NCBI RefSeq assembly: GCF_000016605.1
Contig: NC_009440.1
Location: forward strand, 310,001 to 374,000
From: Metallosphaera sedula DSM 5348
GTDB lineage: Archaea; Thermoproteota; Thermoprotei_A; Sulfolobales; Sulfolobaceae
DNA: 64,000 nt
Direction: 5' to 3'
Positions 5,845 to 64,000 of this stretch are shown piece after piece (position 1 is the first letter of the stretch; the number at the start of each line of letters is the position of its first letter). Both the position numbers and the translations under genes were made by a program. The notes below the pieces were generated by a model. It did no database searches and was not told the origin of the DNA. It saw only the letters and a list, made by a program, of their open reading frames with translations.

Positions 5845-6447
5845 CTAGATAATAGGTCTCTTTTTACTATGCCTTCCCCAGAATCCCTTGAACCTTTCCT
5901 CATCCCACACGTTGCCCCTCTCGTGATATCCCCTTTCCTCCCAATATCCGTCCACGTACTCAGGGATAAGTTCCATTGCGGTTACCCACTTTGCACTCTT
6001 CCATCCATAAAGGTGAGGAAAGAATGGCCTGGCTGGAAATCCCTCCTCCTTTGTTAGGGGTCTGCCATTCATCATTAGGACTAGGATTGAGTCCTCATTC
6101 ATTACGTCTTCAAGAGGTACCGTAGCAGTATATCCATCCAGTGAGTAGAATATCACCCACTTTGCCTCAGGCTTTGGGGAGGCCCTTTCCACGAGTCTTT
6201 TCAAGTTTATTCCTTTCCAGGACACATCCAGAACGCTCCAACCGGTGACGCAGTGGAAATCCCTCTTGTACTCCATGTCCATCATGTTCAGAAGTTCCTG
6301 GTAGGTGAAGCTTAACTCCCTCTCTACCATCCCTGTTATCTTGAACCTGTACTCCTCTACGTTAACCTCAGGGACACCAAGGGCCGCGTAGTATATGAAC
6401 CTCTTGATGGGACGTTGCCCTGGTGGCATTTGTTTTTGGTTTTCCAT
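5845..6447 (-). CDS. Sulfite oxidase-like molybdopterin-binding oxidoreductase
   Basis: Cytosolic molybdoprotein of 200 residues with the sulfite oxidase molybdopterin fold. [14 protein letters not shown] carries the Cys (C66) that should ligate Mo; [15 protein letters not shown] matches the conserved segment before the C-terminus. No heme domain, no Tat signal, no dimerisation domain, so it is close to the minimal size (YedY-like core). It is divergent from doxD-doxA, which suggests a role as sulfite:acceptor oxidoreductase in inorganic sulfur oxidation; the substrate is inferred from context, since related proteins reduce methionine sulfoxide or other S/N-oxides. Confidence 0.85.
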
Positions 6448-6507
6448 AATTACACGGTGTTAATGATCAATAAAAACATGCGTAAGAATTTCCTTCACGT
6501 ATACGCG

Positions 6508-6521
6508 AGAGTCACGACTCT
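6508..6521. promoter_or_regulatory. Inverted repeat in the molybdoprotein/doxD divergent region
   Basis: AGAGTC-AC-GACTCT, a perfect 6+2+6 palindrome between two divergent sulfur-oxidation genes, is a candidate shared operator. A TATA-like ATTATAAAG follows at about 6544-6552. Confidence 0.35.
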
Positions 6522-6668
6522 GATGTAATTTAAAACACATCGGCATTATAAAGTTCTTTCTCTCGAAATGGAAAAATGAATGATAGTTAGCTATTTAAGT
6601 TTTTATAGTTTTAACTTTATTTAAGAAAAATTTAAATTACCTCTCCCAAAGCTTGATTCAGTGATAAC

Positions 6669-7217
6669 ATGGCGGAGAAACAGGGTTTGAATCCCGGAAA
6701 TTCAACGAGGATGGAGTACTTGTTCCCTATCAGGTTCGCAGTGGGATGGATGTTTCTCGATGGAGGACTTAGGAAGGCCGTGCTAAAGCCAGCTAAGTTG
6801 GATCCGAACTCCTCCTCCTTCGTTGGAGGGAAGTTAGTAAACTTCCTGCCACATGCAGGTCCCTTCAAGCCCTTTCTTTTAATGACATTGGAGAATAGGG
6901 GACTCGACGTTACGTTCCTAACAGCATTTAGCTACATAGAGATAATTGCTGGGCTATTTCTTGTGATAGGATTCTTAACTAGGTTATCAGCTCTAGCTGC
7001 GCTCTTCATGTCAGTGGGTTTCGCACCAGCTTACTGGTTAGGATCCACTTGTGAAGATGAATGGCAAATAGGTGCTCTTCTCACAGCAGGTTCCGTAGTG
7101 CTAATGCTTACTGCTACGGGTAGGGTATTCGGGTTAGATAGCGTCCTTTACAAGAAGTTTGGCGACAGGCCTCTTTCCAAGAGGATTCCCATACTCAACA
7201 TGATAAAGCTGTGGTGA
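6669..7217 (+). CDS. doxD: Thiosulfate:quinone oxidoreductase subunit DoxD
   Basis: Integral membrane subunit of thiosulfate:quinone oxidoreductase, which oxidises thiosulfate to tetrathionate and passes electrons to caldariella quinone. About four membrane segments with the DoxD pattern: [15 protein letters not shown], the conserved ALITLF-like helices and the [12 protein letters not shown] loop. Length 182 is normal. The ATG at 6669 follows GTGAT; AT-rich TATA candidates lie at about 6613-6638. It overlaps the doxA start, so the two are translationally coupled, as in Acidianus ambivalens and Metallosphaera. Confidence 0.93.
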
Positions 7218-7723
7218 TCAAATTGGATAGAACATCCATCATAGCTCTAGTGTTTGGAATCCTTGTCATTGGATTCATTCTAGGCACAGGTCAATGGGCA
7301 TATGGTAATGTCGTGGGACCACTGGTTAATTACTCGAAGTTGCCTAAGCTAGAAATAACCTACATCACAGCTAAGGATCAGGGTAATCAGACGCTGTTGA
7401 TAATGAATATTACTGACGTGAACGGTCCAGACGCGTATCCAGCATCAGCTCCTCTCATGGAAATTTACAACTCAACGTGGCATACTTATCTGAATTCCTC
7501 GGAAATCGCCAACTACACGGTCAAGGTAATTCAAGCTCCATGGAATGAGAACAAGAAGGATTATGTTAACTGGTACACAGGGTTTGCCATAGTTCTCGGA
7601 AGTGAGGCTCAGTTCCAACTACTCCTTCCAATTCACCTCAGCCCAGGAACTTACCACGTCAAGTTGTACACACCAGCAATCAGTCAGAAGTCAATGGCAA
7701 TAGCTAATTTCACTATAAGTTAA
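7211..7723 (+). CDS. doxA: Thiosulfate:quinone oxidoreductase subunit DoxA
   Basis: Partner of DoxD. One N-terminal membrane anchor (residues about 9-28) precedes a domain of about 135 residues facing the pseudoperiplasm, with seven N-glycosylation sequons (for example NYS, NIT, NST, NFT), in line with the glycosylated subunits reported for the Acidianus enzyme. Start is GTG 7211 or GTG 7214; the latter gives a GTGA overlap with the doxD stop. T-run terminator follows at once, so the operon is doxDA only. Confidence 0.92.
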
Positions 7724-7729
7724 TTTTTT
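7724..7729 (+). terminator. T-run terminator after doxA
   Basis: Six T directly after the TAA stop. Confidence 0.5.
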
Positions 7730-7750
7730 CCTATCAGTCTTTGGCTTAAG

Positions 7751-7761
7751 ATTTTATATAA
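7751..7761 (+). promoter_or_regulatory. TATA box for the small membrane protein after doxA
   Basis: ATTTTATATAA is centred about 25 nt before ATG 7781, so that ATG rather than the upstream TTG (7766) is taken as start. Confidence 0.6.
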
Positions 7762-7780
7762 CGGATTGATAAACTATGTC

Positions 7781-8218
7781 ATGAGAAGAAACGTAGTTAT
7801 CGTGGGGGGTATAATTCTTTTAATTGGACTAGCGATAGCGATTGGGGGATTCTTTCTAGCCAAGTCTGGGATTCAGATAACCCAGGTTTCGCTATCACCG
7901 AGTCAAGGAAAGACTTTCCCCCTTAAGAGCGGGGTCAATAGCGTGAGCATAGGTTATAATACATCGTTACCACCGAAAGTGGAGATTACGGGTAATGTCA
8001 TCACTACATCATCGTCCAAAAACGTCGAGGCCCTACTCATCAACGGAACTTCCCCAAGTGTATATGTTGAAGATAACTCCACTACCCCTATGCAGGTAAC
8101 CCTTGTTATGACCCAGTTGAACTCCTCCATAGAAGCTGGAGGACTGGCGTTCATTCTGGGCGTTGTAGTATTCTTTGTGGGACTTGGCATACTAATATAT
8201 GGTCTCATAAGGAGATAG
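7781..8218 (+). CDS. Small two-helix membrane protein with exposed sequon-rich loop
   Basis: Unrecognised 145-residue protein. Membrane segments lie at residues about 5-27 and 115-140; the roughly 85 residues between are Ser/Thr/Asn-rich with several N-glycosylation sequons and should lie outside. It ends in a basic RR. It sits 57 bp after doxA but has its own TATA box. The protein at 62940-63416 has the same architecture and also lies beside a sulfur-transfer gene, so the two may form a small Sulfolobales family. Confidence 0.7.
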   Translation: MRRNVVIVGGIILLIGLAIAIGGFFLAKSGIQITQVSLSPSQGKTFPLKSGVNSVSIGYNTSLPPKVEITGNVITTSSSKNVEALLINGTSPSVYVEDNSTTPMQVTLVMTQLNSSIEAGGLAFILGVVVFFVGLGILIYGLIRR

Positions 8219-8367
8219 CTCCTAGTGAGAGACAAAAAGTATAGAAGGCAATGATTAAGTTCGTCGTAGAGGCCTTCCTGTGATGAAGATCCCAAAGTTG
8301 ATTACCGAGACTGTATGTGCAAATGTTCTAACTCTGGAGTTTACAGCAATTTAATCAAGTCTCAAGG

Positions 8368-9036
8368 TTAACTATCCTTATCACATTTGGCCCTATACAG
8401 GCAAAAATCACACTGCCACCTCATATCATCCCTTAACTTAGCCTCAGGTTCTGGAACTTTCCTTTCCTTGATAGCCCTATGAAGGAGTTCAGCTCTCTCC
8501 ATAGTTTTCAGATAGAGTTGCTCATCGAAATCGAGGATAAACTCCTCCATTTCGAAGTTGGACCTATCCACGTAAAGGAGAACTCCCTTCGACTTGGGAA
8601 AGGCCTTCATGTAGAGATTGAGTTGAGCCCTATGTTCGAGTCTTGGTAAGTACCCGTTCCTAACCTTGTGCTGAAGGTTATCCACGCTCTTAACCTCCAC
8701 AAGGTACCTCTCCTTCGTGAATTCAATCACGATGAGGTCATCAGCCCTTCCCGAGATCACTATTTCGTGGTTGGTCGGGTGAGGGATCCTCAAGGGTAGT
8801 TCACTGGTGACCTTCACGCTATCCTCCTTCTTCAGTATCTCAGCTACGAGTTCGTGAAGCGCCTCTCCCAGGACAGTAAACCTCGCTGAATCAATTCCAG
8901 AAAGAACAGGCGAAGTCCTATCATAGTACTGCTTCCTCAGGCAATTCCAGATCTTGGAAGGCCAATACTCACCTTCATACGGTTGCTTAAACTCGTCATC
9001 AACAATATGCTTGTAAATAATTTCCTTCACAACCAC
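8368..9036 (-). CDS. Cas4-like RecB-family PD-(D/E)XK nuclease with Fe-S cysteines (no CRISPR context)
   Basis: 222-residue protein with the Cas4/RecB nuclease core: GRADDLIVIE and YLVEVKSV supply Asp and E-x-K, and QLNLY the Q-x-x-x-Y motif. One Cys near the N-terminus (C32) and C209-x2-C212-x5-C218 at the end match the four [4Fe-4S] ligands of Cas4 and AddB. Expected to be a DNA exonuclease. No cas genes or repeats are near, so it is a solo Cas4 that may serve DNA repair or processing. Start GTG 9036 has a TATA box (about 9057-9066) at leaderless distance. Confidence 0.83.
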   Translation of the reverse strand: MVVKEIIYKHIVDDEFKQPYEGEYWPSKIWNCLRKQYYDRTSPVLSGIDSARFTVLGEALHELVAEILKKEDSVKVTSELPLRIPHPTNHEIVISGRADDLIVIEFTKERYLVEVKSVDNLQHKVRNGYLPRLEHRAQLNLYMKAFPKSKGVLLYVDRSNFEMEEFILDFDEQLYLKTMERAELLHRAIKERKVPEPEAKLRDDMRWQCDFCLYRAKCDKDS

Positions 9037-9140
9037 ATGATGTATTCATGATCCAGGAATAAAAGGGGATTCGTTGCTCTTCTCTAGTAGAACTCCCAAA
9101 AGGAGTTACAACTTTATTATTTTAGGGCGGATACTATAAT

Positions 9141-10709
9141 ATGCCATTTGTAAATGAGAGAACCTATCAACGCTATTTACAGGAGAATAGGGAGGAAGAG
9201 TTTCACAAGCTGGTGGACGAAGGGATAAGGAGAGTTGAGGAACAGCTAGGGCAGGAATATCCAATCCTCATAGGAGACAAGGAGTTAAGGACTCCCTCTA
9301 AGTTTAACGTTAGGTCGCCAGTAGACACTTCTCTCACCTTAGGAGTTTTCCAGAGAGATGATGGGGAGCTCTTGAGAAGCGCCATAAAGTTGGCTAGGGA
9401 ATCCTATAGGGATTGGAAGGACTCAGATTGGAGGGACAGGGTTGAGCTCACGGTCAAGGCTGCCAACGAGCTCAGGAGAATGAAGTATGAGCTGGCAGCT
9501 ACGATCACCTTTGAGAATGGTAAAAACAGATATGAGGCCGTTGCTGAGGTTGATGAAACCATAGACTACTTCAACTATTACGCTCAACTCCTTGAGGAGA
9601 ACAGGGGTTATACCCGGGAGATGGAGGGCAGGATAGTCAAGGGAGAACACGGGATCTCTGTTATGAGGCCCTACGGTCCTTGGTTGATAATCTCTCCCTT
9701 CAATTTCCCTCTGGCCATAACTGCAACCATGACCCTAGGTGCCCTGATCACTGGAAATACCGTCGTAGTTAAACCTTCCTCTGACACACCGCTCTCAGCG
9801 TATAAGCTTGTGACTACGTTGAGAAGAGCTGGCTTCTCAGCAGAGGTGGTGAACTACGTAACTTCTCCAGGCGAGGTGGTTTCCAAGGTCATGGAGGAAA
9901 ACCTTGACATAGCAGGGTTCGCCTTCACGGGTTCAAGGGAGGTGGGACATAGGCTTCTGAAGCAATTCATAAGCCTGAAGCCCAGGCCAGCCGTGTTGGA
10001 ACTCGGGGGAAAGAACGCCACAGTCATCACAGCGAAGGCAGACCTAAGGAAAGCTGTTGAGGGAACATTTAGGGGAGCCTTCGGATTTGGGGGTCAGAAG
10101 TGCAGTGCGACCTCGAGGGTTTTCGTGGAGAGCTCAATTTATCAGGAATTCTTGGCTAGGTTCAAGGCTCGTACTGAGACAGCACAGATAGGAGATCCTA
10201 GGCAGAAGTCAACGTTCCTGGGACCCCTAATTAACAAGGGAGCGGTGGACAAGTTTAGAAGGTATGTGGATCAAGCCATATCCGAGGGTGGCAGAGTCAT
10301 CACTGGCGGGAGAGTTAGGGAGGACACGCGAAGTTATCTGGTGGAGCCCACCATAATCGTGGATCTCCCCTACACCAGTTCCCTGTGGAGGACTGAACTC
10401 TTCGTCCCCATAGTCCTAGTGAAGGAAGTCCAAAACCTGAAGGAGGCCATAAGGCTTGTTAATGATGTAGATTATGGTCTTACGGCAGGCATATTCTCGC
10501 AGGACACGGAAGAGGTAGAGTACTTCTTCAAGAACGTTGAGGCAGGGGTAACTTACGCGAATAGGGAGTCCGGTTCGACCACGGGTGCCATGCCTGGAGT
10601 TCAACCCTTTGGAGGATGGAAGGATTCAGGGTGGACCGGGAGAAATGCAGGTGGACCCTATTACTTGCTATCATTCATGAGGGAACAGGCTAGAACCACT
10701 TACGATTAA
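9141..10709 (+). CDS. Aldehyde dehydrogenase, similar to 1-pyrroline-5-carboxylate dehydrogenase
   Basis: Cytosolic NAD(P)-dependent aldehyde dehydrogenase of 522 residues. Visible motifs: SPFNFPLAI, GNTVVVKPSSDTP, FTGSREVG, LELGGKN with general base E287, and FGGQKCSATSR with nucleophile C321. The SREVG and GQKCSATSR versions and the C-terminal TTGAMPGVQPFGGWKDSG are closest to 1-pyrroline-5-carboxylate dehydrogenase (RocA), which makes glutamate from proline breakdown; another semialdehyde remains possible. No proline dehydrogenase is adjacent. Its TAA stop overlaps the stop of the convergent next gene. Confidence 0.88.
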   Translation: MPFVNERTYQRYLQENREEEFHKLVDEGIRRVEEQLGQEYPILIGDKELRTPSKFNVRSPVDTSLTLGVFQRDDGELLRSAIKLARESYRDWKDSDWRDRVELTVKAANELRRMKYELAATITFENGKNRYEAVAEVDETIDYFNYYAQLLEENRGYTREMEGRIVKGEHGISVMRPYGPWLIISPFNFPLAITATMTLGALITGNTVVVKPSSDTPLSAYKLVTTLRRAGFSAEVVNYVTSPGEVVSKVMEENLDIAGFAFTGSREVGHRLLKQFISLKPRPAVLELGGKNATVITAKADLRKAVEGTFRGAFGFGGQKCSATSRVFVESSIYQEFLARFKARTETAQIGDPRQKSTFLGPLINKGAVDKFRRYVDQAISEGGRVITGGRVREDTRSYLVEPTIIVDLPYTSSLWRTELFVPIVLVKEVQNLKEAIRLVNDVDYGLTAGIFSQDTEEVEYFFKNVEAGVTYANRESGSTTGAMPGVQPFGGWKDSGWTGRNAGGPYYLLSFMREQARTTYD

Positions 10710-11110
10710 CTCATCCTCGTTCCAGTAATCAAAGGTAGTAATTTTAATGTTCTCACGTACTCGACCCATATCTTGGATAGATCCTGTTCATTAGGATCTT
10801 CCATTGAAATTTTGAAATCTAGCTTTCGAAGAAGTGCAAGATAACACCCCTCGCTTAATACCTCTATACCGGCAATCACGTTTAGAGAGGACAATCTGGT
10901 GAGATATTCCTTGATTCTATCCCTCAGTTCTAGAACCCTCTCACATCCAATTCTCCTAGCTATATATAACAGGGTGACACCGGAATCCATGATATCTACG
11001 TAGCTGTTGTCCATGAACCTTATCCTTATACCCCTTTCTATACTTTCAAAGCCTCTGGTAGGCATTCCATGCTCCACTAGAAGTCGGGTGAGCAATTCTT
11101 CTTTATCCAT
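10706..11110 (-). CDS. Hypothetical protein, 134 aa
   Basis: Not recognised. A soluble, mostly helical protein with no obvious motif; a segment FMDNSYVDIMDSGVTLLYIA suggests an alpha/beta N-terminal part and two Cys are scattered. It has its own TATA box (about 11136-11146) and ends in a 4-bp tail-to-tail overlap with the aldehyde dehydrogenase gene. It reads as a real Sulfolobales-type gene because the frame is fully open and the start is well placed. Confidence 0.6.
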   Translation of the reverse strand: MDKEELLTRLLVEHGMPTRGFESIERGIRIRFMDNSYVDIMDSGVTLLYIARRIGCERVLELRDRIKEYLTRLSSLNVIAGIEVLSEGCYLALLRKLDFKISMEDPNEQDLSKIWVEYVRTLKLLPLITGTRMS

Positions 11111-11282
11111 AGTATAAGTTCTAGTGTTATTTCTATATAACTATTACTATAATAGATCCTAATAATAGCCGTTAACTGTTAATTATCATAGTACTAAGGT
11201 AGTAGTCTATTAACGTTCATCAAGGTGTGTAGCCCTAGATAGAGGACGGGGAATAGTAATATTATATGTAGAAAAATTAATT

Positions 11283-11307
11283 GTTCACTGCAAGTTATAT
11301 AGTGAAC
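11283..11307. promoter_or_regulatory. Inverted repeat around a TATA-like core
   Basis: GTTCACT and AGTGAAC are perfect 7-bp arms separated by 11 bp that include TTATAT. It lies between two minus-strand genes, about 170 nt upstream of the hypothetical gene at 10706-11110, and has no clear downstream gene. Confidence 0.35.
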
Positions 11308-11372
11308 GTTTAAAATGTACAGCTAATGCGGTTCTAGGCCGAATAGGAAGTCGTCTTAACGACGTTCACACG

Positions 11373-11978
11373 TCACCAGTCGTCCGGACCTAGAACCCCA
11401 TTCAGGAAGGGATTGGATCTAACTTCATCCTGTAATGTGGTCCTGTCTCCGTGTCCTGGGAACACGTCCACAACGTTCATGGTTTTGATCTTTTCAAGAG
11501 TAACTCTCAGCGTATCCCTATCGCCACCAAGATCATATCTCCCGACGGTTCCCTTGAATAGGGTATCCCCAGTGAACAGGGATTGCCCCACAAGAATTGA
11601 GGTACTCCCCATGGTGTGACCCGGTGTGGATATTCCCATCAAGGTAAGATCGCCTACCCTAATCTCCGTTCCGTCCTTAAGTTCGTCATCTGGCTCTGGT
11701 GGAAGTTCTCTCCAGTCGTAGTAGAGGGGCATTAAATCCACATCCTTGAAGTTGATCAAGAACTTGGCCCCAATTCTCTTCAAGGGTTTCACGCCCAGCA
11801 CATGGTCAAAGTGACCGTGGGTTGAAACTATGTACTTGAGCCTCAGGCCACTTCCTCTCAGAAAAGCGATGACCTCGGAGGGATCTCCACCAGGGTCAAT
11901 TACTAGGGCCTCTCCCTTATCCCAAATAAGGTAACAGTTTGTGTGAAGGGGGCCCAACACGAATGTTCTAAGGTTCAC
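11373..11978 (-). CDS. Metallo-beta-lactamase-fold hydrolase (glyoxalase II / persulfide dioxygenase-like)
   Basis: 201-residue cytosolic protein with the MBL metal site THGHFDH (H-x-H-x-DH), a second ligand His in TPGHTMG, Asp in FTGDTLF and a final His in FPGHGD. The short single-domain form resembles glyoxalase II-like proteins; ETHE1/persulfide dioxygenases have the same fold. It lies 17 bp after dsrE on the same strand and starts with GTG without a clear ribosome site, so it may be the last gene of the tusA operon. In that context persulfide or thioester chemistry is plausible but unproven. Confidence 0.85.
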   Translation of the reverse strand: MNLRTFVLGPLHTNCYLIWDKGEALVIDPGGDPSEVIAFLRGSGLRLKYIVSTHGHFDHVLGVKPLKRIGAKFLINFKDVDLMPLYYDWRELPPEPDDELKDGTEIRVGDLTLMGISTPGHTMGSTSILVGQSLFTGDTLFKGTVGRYDLGGDRDTLRVTLEKIKTMNVVDVFPGHGDRTTLQDEVRSNPFLNGVLGPDDW

Positions 11979-11995
11979 GTATCAAGTTGATTGTC

Positions 11996-12358
11996 CTAAA
12001 AAATAAGCGTGGCTTTTGATTGGGAACTCTTCAGGGCGAATTCTGAAACTCCTCCAACCTTGACCTTGTACACGAACTGGTCCTCGTGTATACCCTTGAC
12101 CCTCATTCCAAACTCACAGGCCGTTATCTCGAGATCCTCCCCAGCCAGTTCCACTAGGTTATCTAGGTAATACTTTAGCGTCTTAGTACCGTTGAGGACT
12201 ATCTTCTCCGACTCTGCTGTGAGCGCCCTAAGCGCGTCCATTGTGAAGAACATGTATATCTTGTTTCCACTAGAGGCGTAACCAATAGCAGTGATCACTC
12301 CCATCATCATCTTTTCGTGCTCGCCTGAGATCATCATGAAGGAGTACATTTCAGTCAT
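11996..12358 (-). CDS. DsrE-family sulfurtransferase subunit
   Basis: 120-residue cytosolic DsrE/DsrF-like protein expected to bind and pass on sulfane sulfur. The conserved Cys is C81 in ITACEFGMRVKGI, which matches the ACxxxM...GI pattern of DsrE2-type proteins. A longer reading frame exists from 12445, but the ATG at 12358 makes an ATGA overlap with the preceding gene and gives the normal family length. Fourth gene of the tusA - yedE - small membrane protein - dsrE operon. Related DsrE proteins of M. cuprina take part in thiosulfate transfer with TusA. Confidence 0.88.
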   Translation of the reverse strand: MTEMYSFMMISGEHEKMMMGVITAIGYASSGNKIYMFFTMDALRALTAESEKIVLNGTKTLKYYLDNLVELAGEDLEITACEFGMRVKGIHEDQFVYKVKVGGVSEFALKSSQSKATLIF

Positions 12359-12654
12359 GATCCAACCTCCTTGGACTGCACATATTTCACCAGGGAAACC
12401 CAAAACATGATCAACCCAACATAAACCACGGTGTAGCAGATCCACGTCGTAGCCTCGAGGTAACCCTGCAATTGGTCTGGTGGAACGTAAACAAGGAAGT
12501 TGGCCTGGTTCAATGCAATGTTGTCAGCCCCCGTCAAGTAAATCTTGCTGAATTGATACCACGCTATTGCGAACAGTGAGAGGACTAGAGGTCCTATTAC
12601 CCTCCTCACGGGATAGGGTTTAGCTTTAGGTTTAGATTTCTCCATTTCCTCCAT
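12355..12654 (-). CDS. Small two-helix membrane protein in the tusA-yedE-dsrE operon
   Basis: 99-residue protein with a basic N-terminus and membrane segments at about 20-37 and 68-88, joined by an outside loop. No family recognised. A GGGTGAG ribosome site lies just before ATG 12654; its stop overlaps the dsrE start (ATGA). Its place between the YeeE/YedE transporter and DsrE suggests an accessory subunit that helps pass sulfur from transporter to acceptor. Confidence 0.75.
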   Translation of the reverse strand: MEEMEKSKPKAKPYPVRRVIGPLVLSLFAIAWYQFSKIYLTGADNIALNQANFLVYVPPDQLQGYLEATTWICYTVVYVGLIMFWVSLVKYVQSKEVGS

Positions 12655-12663
12655 TTTCTCACC

Positions 12664-13911
<1,248 letters not shown>

Positions 13912-13913
13912 CC

Positions 13914-14168
13914 CTATCCCACCTTTAGTATTCTAAACCTGTAAACATCGCCGTCCTTCAACACGAGATAGGGATAACCCATGTTCTTGCAAAGGGACGG
14001 CAACGTTACGTCTACTGCAGGTTGGTGGTCCGTGATGACCTCGAGGACCTGACCGGGCTTCATCTTCTTTAACTTCTTACTGGCCATCATCTCTGGCACG
14101 GGGCAGGACTCGCCGATGACATCAAGTTGATCGTCCGGTTCCTTCACCTTTAGGGGCTCGGAAGACAT
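13914..14168 (-). CDS. tusA: TusA-family sulfur carrier protein
   Basis: 84-residue sulfur carrier with the SirA/TusA fold. The active motif is SCPVPEM with C22, followed by the usual KMKPGQ and [11 protein letters not shown] segments. ATG 14168 has GGTGATG just upstream. First gene of the operon with the YeeE/YedE transporter and DsrE. TusA proteins of Metallosphaera bind thiosulfate or persulfide and deliver it to the Hdr-like oxidation complex; no hdr genes are in this window. Confidence 0.95.
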
Positions 14169-14247
14169 TACATCACCAAGATCATTTACCCTGGGATTCT
14201 TTTAAGTTATGCTCTTTTTTAAACGGTTTTTTAAATAGAGTAAAAAT

Positions 14248-14787
14248 TTAGTAAATTAGCAGATAAAGTATCACGATCACGTAAATGACCGTACCAGCTA
14301 TGGCCCACGGTGTAGGGTTCTGAAGGACCTTGAATCGGGTTGAAAGCGCCGAGTCTAACGATAATTGACCAGGCCCCCTCACGACCAGGTAGAGGTTGAG
14401 GAGCATTAGGAGAAGGTTAATTCCATACTCCTCCGTTCCTGTCCAGTAGGCTGAAAGGAAATAGATGAGGTTGGTGTAGAGGGCGACCGTGCTAGCTAGT
14501 CTAGACATGAGACCTAGAAGGGTGAGGACGCCGAAGCTTATTTCCCCTATCATCACTAGAACTCCCACGGTGTAGACGTGTGGAAATACGACTGCATATA
14601 GGAACCCCCTGATTGGGGAGCCCTCGGCCAGATACTGCACAGTGAAGCCTATGTATGACGTGGAACCTGCGTTAAGGAAACCTGGGTTCAGAAGCTTGTT
14701 GAAAACTCCAGCATCGAGCCAGATAGAGGCTACAGCAAGCCTTAGGATAAGTCTCTCGAGGCTGGACTCATTTCTGAGGGACTTCAA
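14248..14787 (-). CDS. DoxD/DoxX-family membrane protein (DoxD paralogue)
   Basis: 179 residues, about five membrane segments. It aligns by eye with DoxD of the same window ([15 protein letters not shown] versus [21 protein letters not shown] versus [11 protein letters not shown]) but lacks cysteine. No doxA follows; instead it is the last gene after the secreted beta-propeller and the vicinal-Cys membrane protein, overlapping the latter by 20 bp with a TTG start preceded by GAGGT. Probably the quinone-reducing membrane part of a second thiosulfate- or sulfur-oxidising complex; the substrate is unknown. Confidence 0.82.
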
Positions 14788-15685
14788 TACCTATCGACCT
14801 CTTAACCAGTTGAGAGGATATAACTGTTATCTGCCATATTCCCACGCCTAGAAGGATCATTCCCGCGATTGTAGGCGAGAGTAAGAGTATGGCCTGAAGA
14901 ATTCCCCCAGTCCATGCCCCAGCTATGAAAGCCCCATATTTCCAGGTAATCCCCTTGGTCAGGGCGGGATATGAGCCCGAAAGCAGGTAAAGTAGCGAGT
15001 TCATTGCTGTGGGAGAGAGGCAACATATCCCCGCAATTGTCCCGATAGACGGTATGGAAGCAGTTAGGAAACCTGCAGTGGTATTTAGAGTTCCCATGCG
15101 AAGAGACTTGGGGGCCGCCCATTTCATGGCGGAACTGGAAACGTAAAGGAGTGACATCACGTAATACGAGAAAATGAGGGATAAAGTAAGGACGACGTCG
15201 TTGAGTACTCCTAAGAGCAAGAGAGGGACATTCAGCACTAGATCTCCAAGCATGGGTATACCCTCTCCCTGGTAGGTAATTGCAGTAAGCCCCATGAAGT
15301 AGGAACTAACGTTCAGGTTAGGGATAAGGAGGAGGCCAGACACCACGAGGAAACTCAGGTAATAGGCCGGTACAAACACAGCTATCATGGCCCTACCAAC
15401 ACTATCCTTAAGTGTGGCCCTTAGAACAGCCCTCAGCCTCATGGGTCCATGAACTAGAATGAATCTTCCTCTCCTTGATTTGTATAGACTAACTCCTACA
15501 ATAACCGAGACCGCAAGATATGCAATCACGAACACGAGAAAGGGCTTAACAAAGGTAATTTGCCCCGTATCTGCAAGCGGAGAATACCATAGACTCACAA
15601 TTCTAATACCGTTTATTACAATGGGCAAAAATACAGTCGCATTAAAAAATAGAAAGACGTAGAAAAAAGGGTTGATTGGTCTCAT
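14768..15685 (-). CDS. Polytopic membrane protein with a vicinal Cys pair
   Basis: 305 residues, about eight membrane segments, not recognised. Its only cysteines are C221-C222 in [10 protein letters not shown], inside or at the edge of a helix; such a pair could be redox active or bind persulfide. ATG 15685 has an AGGTG ribosome site and begins 9 bp after the propeller gene. The stop lies inside the DoxD-paralogue gene. Operon position suggests it forms a complex with those two proteins. Confidence 0.75.
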
Positions 15686-15694
15686 GATGACACC

Positions 15695-16915
15695 TTAGCA
15701 GTGCAATCCTGTAACAGGAGGTAACATTACCTGATCCACAAGGTAGGTTCCCATGCTCTGGCTTATTGGTATTACAATCGCGGGGGCAGTTGTCAGGGGT
15801 AGAGTATAGGACACTGAAAGGGTGGACAAGGAGATCAAAACTATCATACCTCCAGCGCTAACGCTTCCGTGAATCACCACATATGCGTAACTCCCGCCAG
15901 GCGTGATCTCTATGTCCGCTAAACCTGCGGGAGAGATTTGTGGAAGAGCTATCTCCTTAACTATCTGGAAATTGGACGTAGATATGACAACCACTGTGTC
16001 GTTATTGCTTGGCGCCTCTAAGTAATACTGTCCATTTGGAGTGAAAACGCCTCTCTGAGGAGTCATTCCCTTGGGCATCTGGACCATTCCAAGTAGTTGA
16101 AGGTTGGGTAAGGAATAGAATCCCACAGAGTTATTCCCAGCAAACTCTACCGCAACCATCGTACCCTGTTCGTTGGGGCTTAACATGTAGGGTTGTGAAC
16201 CTAAGCTCGTCGGTTTCACTAGTAGAACCGAGCCGTTACTAGCGCTTATGATATCTATACTGTTATTGAACCTCATGGGTATGAGAAGTTCGCTCCCATC
16301 TGGAGTCCATCTGACGTCACAAGGATAGTACGTCTTACCTGTTGGAGAAACAAACTTTTGACTCCACACTGTCTGAAGCGTCTGCATGTTAATAACTAGA
16401 ACTTCGCCTGAGGGTCCATCAGCTATGGCCGCATAGTCACCGTTAGGGGAAATTGCAACTCCAATGAAACCTGTGGAAGATCCAACCTGTAAAGTTTTAA
16501 CTACCTTGAAGTTGGTCGTGTTTATAATGAAGACAGTGCCGTTATTCAAGGGCATAAACATGTACTTTATGGATGCTCCAACAGGTACCTCTTCCCAGTA
16601 ATATACCTGTGTGGGCACACTAGTAGATATATTCTCTACTCTCTGGAAGCCAAGAAAACTCTGACTGCTGCTGAAGGGGTTGAGAACTTGAGCTATCCCC
16701 TTTTGCGTAAGGGCCAAGAAGTAGAAGTTGTTATTTGGAGTCGAGGTCGTGGTTGAGGTACTGGTGTTGGTTGTCGTGGTGGTAGTGGTCGTTGTAGGAG
16801 ACGTGGTGGACGTGGAGGGACCGCTGGTGTTGCTTCTCATCATAATATAAGCTGCACCTATTCCCACAAGAAGTATCACGACTATTCCAGCTATTAATAA
16901 CGCCTTATAGTTCAT
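15695..16915 (-). CDS. Secreted/membrane-anchored YVTN-type beta-propeller protein
   Basis: 406 residues: an N-terminal membrane anchor (about 5-25), a Ser/Thr-rich linker (about 29-60, long Thr runs as in glycosylated archaeal surface proteins), then six or seven beta-propeller blades with repeats such as [13 protein letters not shown] and [15 protein letters not shown]. Many sequons. Only two cysteines: C199 (YYPCDVRW) and the very last residue C406 (GLHC). These could form a disulfide or carry a substrate. Faces outside. First gene of the operon with the vicinal-Cys membrane protein and DoxD paralogue. Confidence 0.8.
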
Positions 16916-16997
16916 ACTCTCTCATATAAAAGCAAGTGAAGCATCTTTTAAAAATAGCGTATTTATAACTAGTTTCTATCTTTTGCTTTATTTTTTA

Positions 16998-17327
16998 TTA
17001 AATAGTTATAACTAGGTCAACGTCGTCTATAACTGCCTTGTAAAAGTCTGGGAAACATCCTATCTTGCAGGAGGGAATCAGTTTATCGGCTATATTCCTC
17101 ATATATACGCACTGATCGCAAGCCTGAAGGTATATTCCCTTCTTTGAGAGCTCCTCAAGTCTTTGACCAAGGGGATTCTCCCTCATGGGGATGTAAACGT
17201 TATCGTGAATGAAAAACATCCCCTTAACCTCAACTCCGTGTCTACCTTCCTCGAGTTGAGGCACTATCATCTGACCGAGGATGTAGGAGCCAAGGTTGGA
17301 CTCAACTATGTACGCTACTCTTTTCAA
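16998..17327 (-). CDS. Cys-rich DsrE-related protein (SaoD-like)
   Basis: 109-residue DsrE-fold protein: VAYIVESNLGSYILGQMI opens the Rossmann-like fold and QACDQCVYMRN plus SCKIGC give four closely placed cysteines. It resembles the DsrE-related SaoD family. Starts with TTG 17327 (a GGTGATGG motif precedes it) and overlaps the upstream gene by 26 bp, so the two are coupled. Likely to handle sulfane sulfur, but its partner is unknown. Confidence 0.75.
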   Translation of the reverse strand: MKRVAYIVESNLGSYILGQMIVPQLEEGRHGVEVKGMFFIHDNVYIPMRENPLGQRLEELSKKGIYLQACDQCVYMRNIADKLIPSCKIGCFPDFYKAVIDDVDLVITI

Positions 17328-17670
17328 CTTCCATCACCTTAGCTAGCTCCTCAGCTAACTTCTCAAGGACATGGTTAATCTGCAACCCCTTTACCCTTCC
17401 TAGGACCTCCCTCCAGTTCTCAGGAGTGACTCCATCCTCCATAGCCTCTAGAAGTGCCTCCAAACCTATGATAACAAGAGGGCACTCTGAGGATTTGTAC
17501 CTTATCTCCTCTCCCCTCCTGTAAATCTCAAACCATCTCTGACCATCCAGGTTAACCCTAGTTACTAGTCTAAAGCCCCTTTCCCCGTTCAGGGCGTAAA
17601 ACCTTCTCACGAGGAAGTCTGAAGCATACTTCCTCTCTACAACGCAACCACATGAATCTTTCTTGACCAT
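17302..17670 (-). CDS. Hypothetical 122-aa protein coupled to the DsrE-like gene
   Basis: Not recognised. The N-terminus has DSCGCVV, the middle is beta-rich, and a helix of about 35 charged residues ends the protein. One more Cys lies in SSECPLV. ATG 17670 has a TATA box (about 17691-17700) at leaderless distance. The 26-bp overlap with the Cys-rich DsrE gene implies joint function, perhaps a regulatory or docking partner. Confidence 0.65.
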   Translation of the reverse strand: MVKKDSCGCVVERKYASDFLVRRFYALNGERGFRLVTRVNLDGQRWFEIYRRGEEIRYKSSECPLVIIGLEALLEAMEDGVTPENWREVLGRVKGLQINHVLEKLAEELAKVMEVEKSSVHS

Positions 17671-17827
17671 ACTTTTTATGATTATTTGCTAATTTATAAA
17701 TGTTTTGAATATCAACAGAATAAATGATAAATCATTCATACGTTCATGGAAGATGACGAGTCTTCAAGGGCTTTCCAGTGATGCAAGAAGTGCCCTGAGG
17801 CTAACCTTAAATTGAAAATAAAAAATA

Positions 17828-17837
17828 CTTATATATC
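17828..17837 (+). promoter_or_regulatory. TATA box for the TusA-fusion gene
   Basis: CTTATATATC is centred about 25 nt before GTG 17857. This supports the GTG rather than the upstream in-frame TTG at 17812. Confidence 0.6.
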
Positions 17838-17856
17838 TGAAAAACTAATTAATCAT

Positions 17857-18834
17857 GTGGAAACTTCAGTTGTGTTGAGGGTGAGGGGGTTCCAGCAACT
17901 CCTAGATGTGGAGAAGTATCATAGGCTCTACATGCTATCCGACGTTAGGAGATTGAGTTGGGGTTACTCTGCCAAGTTAAAGTTGGGCAAGATCTCATTC
18001 CCCGTTTTGGTGAAGGTTGGGAGAAACTCTCTGGAAATGTACGAGGAGCAGGGTAAATTCATGGTTCACTTGGAATTCGTTGAGGGAGACAGCGTCAAGG
18101 TAAGGATCAGGGTGGAGGCGTCGAATGAAATGGTGAAGTCTTCCCTAGAGGAGGGAATTTCCAGGAACCTTAATGAATACGCCGAATCCATCTGTAAGGC
18201 TGGGAAGGGAAGATCTCAGGAGCCCTTGGGATTAATCATGATGATGAAACCCTTTGTCAGGAGGCATCTTGACGTTAGGGGGGAGCAATGTCCTATTCCA
18301 GAAATTGCAGCAAAGAAGGAGTTAACCAAGATGAAACCAGGGGAGGAATTGGAGATATTAGTGGATCATCCTGCTGCCGTAGACGTGACGCTTCCTGAGG
18401 TTGCGAAACTCATGAACTGCAGGTATGACATCTACAACATGGGAGATTACGTTTCCTTTGTGATGCTGAAACTGGGAGATCCAATCATGAATAAAAATTA
18501 CCTTGAGGCGTTGACAAAACGCGAGAGGATACCTGAGATGATGAAGGACATGGGATTCATAGCGTTTCTGTACTCTGTCTTTGACAAGGTGATAAGGCAA
18601 TTACCCACAGATGGTCTTTACCCAGAGATCTTCAGATATGACGGCCTCACCCTCGTAACCTCTGCGTCCATAGGTCGCGGTTGGCTAGCGGTAGCATTAG
18701 TTGAAGACGACAAGATTTTGGGAATGATGCTGGACATTAAGGGAGATAGGTACTGGAATCAGGACGCGCTGAAGGTCATAAACAGGGTGAAGGGAATAGG
18801 GAACGTCTTTTACCTCAAGGCTAGTTCAACCTAA
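17857..18834 (+). CDS. TusA-domain fusion protein (N-terminal SRPBCC-like domain, central TusA, C-terminal unknown domain)
   Basis: 325 residues in three parts. Residues about 1-120 form a beta-rich domain ending in an amphipathic helix, which looks like an SRPBCC (helix-grip) domain. Residues about 135-207 are a full TusA domain with GEQCPIPE (C145), KMKPGE and DHPAAVDVTLP. The last about 115 residues form an alpha/beta domain I do not recognise. Start GTG 17857 is set by the TATA box. It is expected to carry sulfur like TusA while binding a hydrophobic ligand or partner. Its 3' end overlaps the convergent gene by 9 bp. Confidence 0.8.
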   Translation: METSVVLRVRGFQQLLDVEKYHRLYMLSDVRRLSWGYSAKLKLGKISFPVLVKVGRNSLEMYEEQGKFMVHLEFVEGDSVKVRIRVEASNEMVKSSLEEGISRNLNEYAESICKAGKGRSQEPLGLIMMMKPFVRRHLDVRGEQCPIPEIAAKKELTKMKPGEELEILVDHPAAVDVTLPEVAKLMNCRYDIYNMGDYVSFVMLKLGDPIMNKNYLEALTKRERIPEMMKDMGFIAFLYSVFDKVIRQLPTDGLYPEIFRYDGLTLVTSASIGRGWLAVALVEDDKILGMMLDIKGDRYWNQDALKVINRVKGIGNVFYLKASST

Positions 18835-63424: not shown

Positions 63425-64000
63425 TTAGGATGTGAGCACCCTAGGAAGAGTTTCCTTAGCCTTTTCTAAATGTTTCCTTATGGATTTCTTAGCTTGACCA
63501 CTAAGAGGACCCTTATACCATTCTGTTATATCTAAGGTGACCTCATTTCCAACTCTATTGGAGACGAATCTCCAACCAAAACTAATCCTGGTCATGGGTA
63601 GTTTCTGATACGCGGTATAGTAAACTATGTCCCCCTTAGGTAAGGGGTTCAAGGTAACGTACAAGGGGGTCTCCCAGCTAATAAACCATTTCATGTGAAG
63701 AATGTAACTTCCAGGGGCCACATTATCTACTGCCTTAATCTGAGGGACGAAGGACATTAAAATGGTTGGATCTGACAACTTGTCCCTCAACCTCACATCC
63801 CCTAGAGTTATTCGTTCAGTATCACTTACGCCTTCAATCTCATCTATTTTCGCCGAACCCCTCTCCTTGTAAATAATGAACTTCACATATTCGCCTTCCT
63901 TCACTGTTTCGTATCTAAGACCAAGCGACTTACATAGTGATGGTAAGGTAACATCAATTGCAGGTTCATGATCCGTTAAAACAACTAGTTTACCTGAGGG
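63425..64000 (-). CDS. TusA-SRPBCC fusion protein (5' truncated by window edge)
   Basis: The frame is open to the last base. The codons upstream of the internal GTG at 63904 encode [20 protein letters not shown], the C-terminal half of a TusA domain nearly matching the TusA at 13914. After it, about 140 residues fit an SRPBCC (helix-grip) domain: [17 protein letters not shown], an extended beta region and a final helix [12 protein letters not shown]. So TusA comes first and SRPBCC second, the reverse of the fusion at 17857. The active-site Cys lies beyond the window. Confidence 0.85.

What the first reader, a model, noticed from the sequence alone, without database searches (positions are those of the whole stretch)
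5845..18834. Sulfur island that could link external thiosulfate oxidation, uptake and cytosolic sulfur transfer
Seen: sulfite-oxidase-like gene, doxDA, tusA, YeeE/YedE transporter with all three relay cysteines, two DsrE-type genes, a DoxD paralogue, a secreted propeller and a TusA fusion within 13 kb. Known: DoxDA oxidises thiosulfate outside; TsuA-type proteins import it; TusA/DsrE pass it to Hdr-like complexes. Inference: the cell can either oxidise thiosulfate at the membrane or import it and hand it to TusA, with sulfite removed by the molybdoprotein.
Basis: partly seen in the sequence, partly recalled or inferred. Interest (0 to 1): 0.72.

Follow-up and report, generated by a model that had tools for sequence, protein, structure and literature searches.

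The report
Sulfur-import island with unknown extracellular module
In this acid-loving hot-spring archaeon, a transporter thought to import thiosulfate sits in a block of about ten genes that related species keep or lose as a set; the block includes two uncharacterised membrane or surface proteins with perfectly conserved cysteines, which suggests an unstudied way of taking sulfur from outside the cell.

Summary
The window is G000:C1:310001-374000 of a 2,191,517-bp Sulfolobaceae genome (probably Metallosphaera sedula, from genome length). Pfam/NCBIfam confirm TQO DoxDA, a sulfite-oxidase-like protein, YeeE with all three relay cysteines, TusA, two DsrE proteins, a DoxD paralogue, a propeller and a TusA fusion. 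Across 31 Sulfolobaceae genomes, yeeE, the propeller, a new 305-aa membrane family (MEM305) and the TusA fusion occur in the same 23 and are absent from the same 8. They stay within 12 kb of yeeE in 22 of 23 (contig break in the other), despite at least five gene orders. DoxDA and the sulfite-oxidase-like gene are not part: they occur independently and lie about 58-1900 kb away outside Metallosphaera. The true unit is tusA-yeeE-TM99-dsrE_a, hyp122-dsrE_b-propeller-MEM305-doxD' and the TusA fusion. MEM305 has an invariant Cys-Cys at the predicted outer face; the propeller ends in invariant -GLHC. A Nitrososphaerales contig carries tusA/yeeE/TM99, MEM305 and two propellers sharing the two cysteines between them. 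Best reading: TsuA/TsuB-like import with an undescribed extracytoplasmic cysteine-bearing partner. Substrate and direction are untested.

The parts
11996..12358 (-). dsrE_a, DsrE-family protein, 120 aa, Cys81; probably the DsrE5 group of PMC4175335 (inferred from gene numbering in M. cuprina)
   Evidence: PF13686 2.4e-7, PF02635 7.6e-6; last gene of block A in all relatives; Cys in 21/23, the other two are truncated in the fetched stretches
12355..12654 (-). TM99, small membrane protein, overlaps dsrE_a by 4 nt; no Pfam family above cut-off
   Evidence: 23 orthologues next to yeeE; Cys73 invariant in Sulfolobaceae; also next to yeeE in L072, apparently without the Cys
12664..13911 (-). yeeE (YeeE-1), TsuA/YeeE-family sulfur transporter, relay cysteines C40, C113, C378 plus a fourth invariant C334
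   Evidence: PF04143 3.3e-51; alignment to TsuA 6LEO; cysteines invariant in 23/23; in 23/31 Sulfolobaceae
13914..14168 (-). tusA, sulfur carrier with CPVP motif, 2 nt upstream of yeeE
   Evidence: PF01206 1.2e-20; Cys invariant in 23/23
14248..14787 (-). doxD' (island DoxD paralogue), no cysteine, no DoxA partner; overlaps MEM305 by 20 nt
   Evidence: PF04173 8.4e-51; 30% identical to the TQO DoxD of the same window; beside MEM305 in 22 genomes
14768..15685 (-). MEM305, unknown polytopic membrane protein, invariant vicinal C221-C222 in x(I/V/L)CCL(T/S)PT, at the predicted extracytoplasmic face
   Evidence: no Pfam match, no PDB match; CC in 22/22 and in L072; positive-inside profile; in the same 23/31 genomes as yeeE
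15695..16915 (-). secreted YVTN-type beta-propeller: N-terminal anchor, Ser/Thr stalk, propeller, flexible tail; only two cysteines, C199 and C-terminal C406 (-GLHC)
   Evidence: PF10282 3.1e-5; AF2 pLDDT 78.6, best PDB match 1l0q; both Cys invariant in 22/22; full-length in 23/31 genomes
16998..17327 (-). dsrE_b, small DsrE-family protein with invariant C70-x2-C73 and C91
   Evidence: PF02635 2.5e-5; invariant in 20/20; in 21 of the 23 yeeE genomes, a decayed copy in one of the other two
17302..17670 (-). hyp122, unknown small protein with invariant C7-x-C9 and C63; overlaps dsrE_b; TATA-like TTTATAAA about 22 nt before its ATG (read by eye)
   Evidence: no consistent Pfam match; 20 orthologues; sequence
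17857..18834 (+). TusA fusion: unknown N-terminal domain, TusA domain (CPIP), unknown C-terminal domain with GRGWL motif (longest ORF starts at 17812)
   Evidence: PF01206 2e-17; full-length only in the 23 yeeE genomes, one of them split; Cys160 (ORF numbering from 17812) invariant
11373..11978 (-). MBL-fold hydrolase (glyoxalase II/ETHE1-like); Metallosphaera neighbour, not core
   Evidence: PF00753 1.4e-31; beside dsrE_a in four of five Metallosphaera relatives, absent in L029
6669..7217 (+). doxD, TQO large subunit; adjacent but not part of the conserved unit
   Evidence: NF041179 333 bits, cut-off 300
7211..7723 (+). doxA, TQO small subunit; adjacent but not part of the conserved unit
   Evidence: NF041178 327 bits, cut-off 300; distribution independent of yeeE
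5845..6447 (-). sulfite-oxidase-like molybdoprotein, catalytic domain only; not part of the conserved unit
   Evidence: PF00174 2.4e-41; in 30/31 genomes, mostly far from yeeE

Best explanation
The real unit is a co-inherited sulfur-import island, not the whole 13 kb. Block A (tusA-yeeE-TM99-dsrE_a): YeeE-1 moves thiosulfate, or a similar sulfane-sulfur species, inward past its three cysteines and hands it to the CPxP cysteine of TusA, as TsuA and TsuB do; DsrE_a takes it on. Block B (hyp122-dsrE_b-propeller-MEM305-doxD'): the anchored extracellular propeller binds or prepares the substrate outside, with MEM305, whose Cys-Cys lies at the outer face, and DoxD', which may pass electrons to quinone as DoxD does in TQO. 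DsrE_b, hyp122 and the TusA fusion spread or sense the cargo inside. Shown: gene identities, invariant cysteines, shared presence and absence, clustering despite reshuffling. Inferred: substrate, direction, TusA as acceptor, roles of propeller, MEM305 and DoxD'. DoxDA and the sulfite-oxidase-like protein act independently.
For: Same 23 of 31 genomes for yeeE, propeller, MEM305 and TusA fusion, with whole-set absence inside three genera (g6, g7, g9). Blocks stay together through at least five arrangements. Relay cysteines match TsuA. TusA lies 2 nt upstream of yeeE in the window and directly upstream in relatives. Extracytoplasmic MEM305 CC. Invariant propeller C199 and C406, the tail predicted flexible. 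A Nitrososphaerales contig keeps tusA-yeeE-TM99, propellers and MEM305.
Against: No expression or biochemical data for these genes. YeeE-1 scores far below the NCBIfam TsuA cut-offs (76 of 400; 70 of 645) and keeps about two of four TsuB-contact residues. The nearest NCBIfam models for YeeE and TusA are the selenium-linked YedE and YedF, also below cut-off. The MEM305 model is weak (pLDDT 68.4 overall, below 50 around Cys-Cys), so its topology rests on charge bias. The role of DoxD' without DoxA is unknown.
Confidence: 0.5

Rival explanations
1. One reading: DoxDA, the sulfite-oxidase-like protein and the YeeE/TusA/DsrE genes form one pathway island offering oxidation outside or import, with sulfite removal.
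For: All genes are within 13 kb here and in three Metallosphaera relatives.
Against: doxDA and the sulfite-oxidase-like gene lie about 58-1900 kb away in other genera, and their distribution does not follow yeeE (doxA p = 0.15, SO p = 1.0). Four yeeE+ genomes lack TQO-type doxA and four yeeE- genomes have it.
Confidence: 0.1
2. Extracytoplasmic redox or disulfide system: propeller, MEM305 and DoxD' oxidise a thiol or sulfur compound outside and feed electrons to quinone; YeeE-1 imports only a by-product.
For: The Cys-Cys at the outer face beside a DoxD paralogue resembles membrane thiol oxidoreductases; the invariant propeller cysteines could be substrates.
Against: The CC is vicinal, not CxxC; no VKOR, DsbB or DsbD similarity by Pfam, PDB or fold search; DoxD' is absent from the Nitrososphaerales contig.
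Confidence: 0.2
3. Sensing or signalling module: YeeE-1 passes a little sulfur to TusA and the TusA fusion, which report sulfur supply, as proposed for SoxT1B in Hyphomicrobium (PMC11582611).
For: TusA fused to unknown domains; several small DsrE and cysteine proteins; precedent for a signalling YeeE homologue.
Against: No regulator or DNA-binding domain is conserved in the island; a large anchored propeller is unusual for a pure sensor.
Confidence: 0.12
4. Selenium or another oxyanion is the cargo, since the closest NCBIfam models are YedE/FdhT and YedF.
For: NF033796 108.7 bits for YeeE, NF008242 46.7 bits for TusA.
Against: Both are well below cut-off. Sulfolobales are not known to make selenoproteins (own knowledge, not tested). 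DsrE and DoxD neighbours point to sulfur.
Confidence: 0.03

Closest known systems
TsuA-TsuB (YeeE-YeeD) thiosulfate importer, Spirochaeta thermophila / E. coli (PMC11073785)
   Same: YeeE fold family, the three relay cysteines, an adjacent TusA-family protein with CPxP
   Different: Adds a fourth invariant Cys, TM99, two DsrE proteins and the propeller/MEM305/DoxD' block; far below TsuA model cut-offs; two of four TsuB-contact residues differ
SoxT transporters (PMC11582611)
   Same: YeeE-family import linked to sulfur oxidation and TusA-type carriers
   Different: No Sox genes nearby; archaeal, with an anchored propeller instead of periplasmic SoxYZ
TQO (DoxDA), Acidianus (PMC8551704)
   Same: Island DoxD' belongs to the DoxD family
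   Different: Only 30% identical to the local TQO DoxD, no DoxA partner; the true DoxDA is a separate locus
Hdr-linked dsrE3A-dsrE2B-tusA cluster, Metallosphaera cuprina (PMC4175335)
   Same: DsrE and TusA carriers for sulfane or thiosulfonate groups
   Different: Different locus with no Hdr genes; the Hdr-linked set is reported in every Sulfolobaceae member (PMC11323534), this island only in 23/31
Tetrathionate hydrolase TetH (PMC11818568)
   Same: Extracellular beta-propeller in sulfur oxidisers
   Different: TetH is an 8-bladed PQQ-family protein of 537 aa with one Cys; this one is a 406-aa YVTN/lactonase-type with two invariant Cys, one of them C-terminal

Membership tests
TsuA/YeeE thiosulfate transporters | Sulf_transp domain | tested here: met
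   PF04143 3.3e-51
TsuA/YeeE thiosulfate transporters | three relay cysteines (C22, C91, C293) | tested here: met
   C40, C113, C378 aligned and invariant in 23 orthologues
TsuA/YeeE thiosulfate transporters | score over the curated TsuA model | tested here: not met
   76.2 of 400 and 70.4 of 645 bits; so 'works like', not 'is TsuA'
TsuA/YeeE thiosulfate transporters | TsuB-contact residues R28, R98, E101, E261 | tested here: inconclusive
   R98 kept, E261 becomes Asp, R28 and E101 not kept, read from the alignment; residues named in PMC11073785
TsuA/YeeE thiosulfate transporters | transports thiosulfate | not testable with these tools
   needs an uptake assay
TQO (6669-7723) | DoxD and DoxA over curated cut-offs | tested here: met
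   333/300 and 327/300 bits
TQO (island DoxD', 14248-14787) | DoxA partner | tested here: not met
   no DoxA inside the island in any of the 22 genomes compared
Sulfite oxidase family | Moco domain with ligand Cys | tested here: met
   PF00174 2.4e-41, Cys66
Sulfite oxidase family | dimerisation domain or known SorA/SoxC/MsrP subfamily | tested here: not met
   200 aa; all subfamily models far below cut-off
TusA | PF01206 with CPxP cysteine | tested here: met
   TusA CPVP, fusion CPIP
Tetrathionate hydrolase (propeller) | 8-bladed PQQ-type propeller of about 537 aa with one Cys | tested here: not met
   406 aa, YVTN/lactonase-type, two Cys; no direct alignment to a TetH sequence was made
Thiocyanate dehydrogenase / L-NosZ copper propellers | histidine-rich copper site | tested here: not met
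   only H349 and H405 invariant
Hdr-linked DsrE3A | Cys-X7-Cys and hdr linkage | tested here: not met
   DsrE_a has one Cys, DsrE_b CxxC plus C91; no hdr genes in the island

The most novel reading that the evidence does not exclude
Sulfur or thiosulfate is carried across the cell envelope on protein cysteines: it is loaded outside onto the flexible C-terminal cysteine of the anchored propeller, passed to the outer-face Cys-Cys of MEM305, and delivered to the YeeE-1 relay and TusA, making a protein-bound sulfur conveyor analogous to a SoxY swinging arm but built from unrelated parts. The Nitrososphaerales contig, where the two propeller cysteines sit on separate paralogues, argues that they need not form an internal disulfide.
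Probability: 0.2. Interest if true: 0.82.

Novelty: new variant of a known kind. Interest (0 to 1): 0.55.

Why it matters
How Sulfolobales bring sulfur compounds from a hot acidic exterior into cytoplasmic oxidation is an open question (PMC11323534). This island gives a defined gene set, including two uncharacterised families tied to a YeeE transporter by shared gain and loss, that can be deleted and assayed. It also separates this set from DoxDA and the sulfite-oxidase-like gene, and suggests that published expression data on 'yeeE' refer to a different paralogue.

Tried and rejected
Rejected: DoxDA and the sulfite-oxidase-like gene as island members. Rejected: propeller as TetH or a copper enzyme. 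Rejected: an obligatory C199-C406 disulfide as the only role of the propeller cysteines, because the Nitrososphaerales paralogues split them; this is one contig from one MAG. Rejected: transferring the A. brierleyi/S. ohwakuensis yeeE induction (PMC11323534) to this gene. The phylum search found MEM305 only in Sulfolobaceae plus one 18.6-bit hit that I treat as chance.
Full report
Identity of the window. The window is G000:C1:310001-374000 of a single 2,191,517-bp contig. That length equals my recollection of Metallosphaera sedula DSM 5348; no tool named the genome. It lies in a family of 31 sampled species genomes, among them M. javensis, M. yellowstonensis and Ca. Aramenus by contig name and length, that is, Sulfolobaceae.

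Observation. DoxD and DoxA at 6669-7723 exceed the curated TQO cut-offs. The sulfite-oxidase-like protein is a 200-aa catalytic domain with its Moco cysteine. YeeE carries C40, C113 and C378, which align with the three relay cysteines of TsuA. TusA and the TusA fusion keep CPxP. By eye, a TATA-like TTATATAT lies about 20 nt before a GTG at 17857, close to where the family alignment begins, so I take that as the likely start of the fusion.

What is conserved. I fetched up to 20 kb around yeeE in 22 relatives and mapped every window protein onto it. Three pieces recur: block A tusA-yeeE-TM99-dsrE_a; block B hyp122-dsrE_b-propeller-MEM305-doxD'; and the TusA fusion. They stay close together in all relatives except one broken contig, yet their order and strand differ: A and B in tandem (Metallosphaera, G019), divergent (g11, g3), dsrE_b/hyp122 moved to block A (G012, G013), block B on the other side of A (G015, G023), and variants in the strand of the fusion. 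Genes that are reshuffled but never dispersed are unlikely to be neighbours by inheritance alone.

Shared gain and loss. yeeE, propeller, MEM305 and full-length TusA fusion are each found in the same 23 genomes and in none of the other 8. In G022 the propeller model gave only two 25-bit N-terminal scraps, and I count it as absent. In G016 the fusion is split. dsrE_b is in 21 of the 23; G015 lacks it and G011 has a decayed copy. Treated as independent species the match has p = 1.3e-7, which overstates it because species are related. A safer statement is that three genera (g6, g7, g9) each contain a species lacking the whole set beside species having it. By contrast TQO-type doxA is present in four yeeE- genomes and missing from four yeeE+ genomes, the sulfite-oxidase-like gene is in 30 of 31, and outside Metallosphaera both lie about 58-1900 kb from yeeE or on other contigs.

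The unknown parts. MEM305 has no Pfam, PDB-sequence or PDB-fold relative. All 22 Sulfolobaceae members and the Nitrososphaerales one keep a vicinal Cys-Cys. Loop charges averaged over the family alternate (loop 66-97 about +6.9, 184-200 +2.2, 237-255 +2.0, C-terminus +2.5, against -0.8, -1.2 and 0 for the others). By the positive-inside rule this puts the Cys-Cys at the outer face. The AlphaFold model is poor there (pLDDT below 50), so this is a prediction from charge, not structure. The propeller has one N-terminal hydrophobic helix, a Ser/Thr-rich stalk, a YVTN-type propeller (best PDB match 1l0q, an archaeal surface-layer protein) and a flexible tail (residues 399-406 below pLDDT 50) ending in -GLHC. 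Its only two cysteines, C199 and C406, are invariant in 22/22.

Outside Sulfolobaceae. One genome-contig scan found MEM305 in a 10,170-bp contig of a Nitrososphaerales MAG (L072, JASHPA010000054.1). Its G+C is 56.9% against 47.6% for the window and 31.8-52.4% for six Sulfolobaceae loci, and its MEM305 is 36-43% identical to the others, so it is not a stray copy of a known Sulfolobaceae genome. It carries TM99, yeeE, tusA, a thioredoxin-like protein, MEM305 and two propellers. One propeller ends in -GLHC but has Ser at the C199 position; the other has the C199 cysteine but ends in -GQQG. This splitting argues against an obligatory internal disulfide and for cysteines that can act on separate subunits. 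It is one contig from one MAG. The L072 contig has no DoxD, DsrE_b, hyp122 or TusA fusion, so the minimal core may be tusA-yeeE-TM99 plus propeller and MEM305.

Mechanism. From TsuA/TsuB (PMC11073785) the natural reading is import past the YeeE cysteines to TusA. From M. cuprina (PMC4175335), DsrE3A and TusA carry thiosulfonate from tetrathionate, and the Hdr-linked cluster is reported in all Metallosphaera (PMC7325606). I did not locate that cluster here, so delivery to Hdr is inference. Propeller, MEM305 and DoxD' most likely act on the substrate outside; what they do chemically is open.

A caution about the literature. PMC11323534 reports a YeeE-type transporter up 211-fold and 4-fold on sulfur and absent from S. 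tokodaii, S. acidocaldarius and S. solfataricus. The island yeeE is present in all four genomes of genus g11. G030 of that genus has the length I recall for S. tokodaii (2,694,756), and its SOR matches PDB 6m35, which I take to be the S. tokodaii enzyme, at 301/301; G028 matches equally. A second family member of this genome, yeeE-2 at about 1.12 Mb, is intact in G027-G029 but only a fragment in G030 and absent or fragmentary in all but one of genus g6. The published pattern therefore fits yeeE-2 better, and I do not use those fold-changes for this locus. The genome identities are inferred, so this is a likely correction rather than a proven one.

Verdict. A real, conserved, partly unexplained sulfur-import island; ordinary in its transporter and carriers, new in the extracytoplasmic module linked to them. 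I found no paper in the held library that describes this gene set, but most subscription papers are not held.

Noticed in passing
G000:C1:1121597-1122844 (L048:9598-10848): Second YeeE-family transporter (yeeE-2); its distribution fits the published sulfur-induced 'yeeE' of PMC11323534 better than the island gene does.
   Followed up: partly
L072:5200-8171: Two adjacent propeller paralogues with the two invariant cysteines split between them.
   Followed up: yes
   Followed up: no
window 63425-64000 (- strand, runs off the end): Another TusA-domain protein with an extra C-terminal domain; similar TusA-extended ORFs lie inside the island in genus g11.
   Followed up: no
G026:C1:501802-502353 and G026:C1:220062-220379: Extra partial MEM305 and a second dsrE_b copy away from the island; second dsrE_b copies also in G019 and G030.
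   Followed up: no
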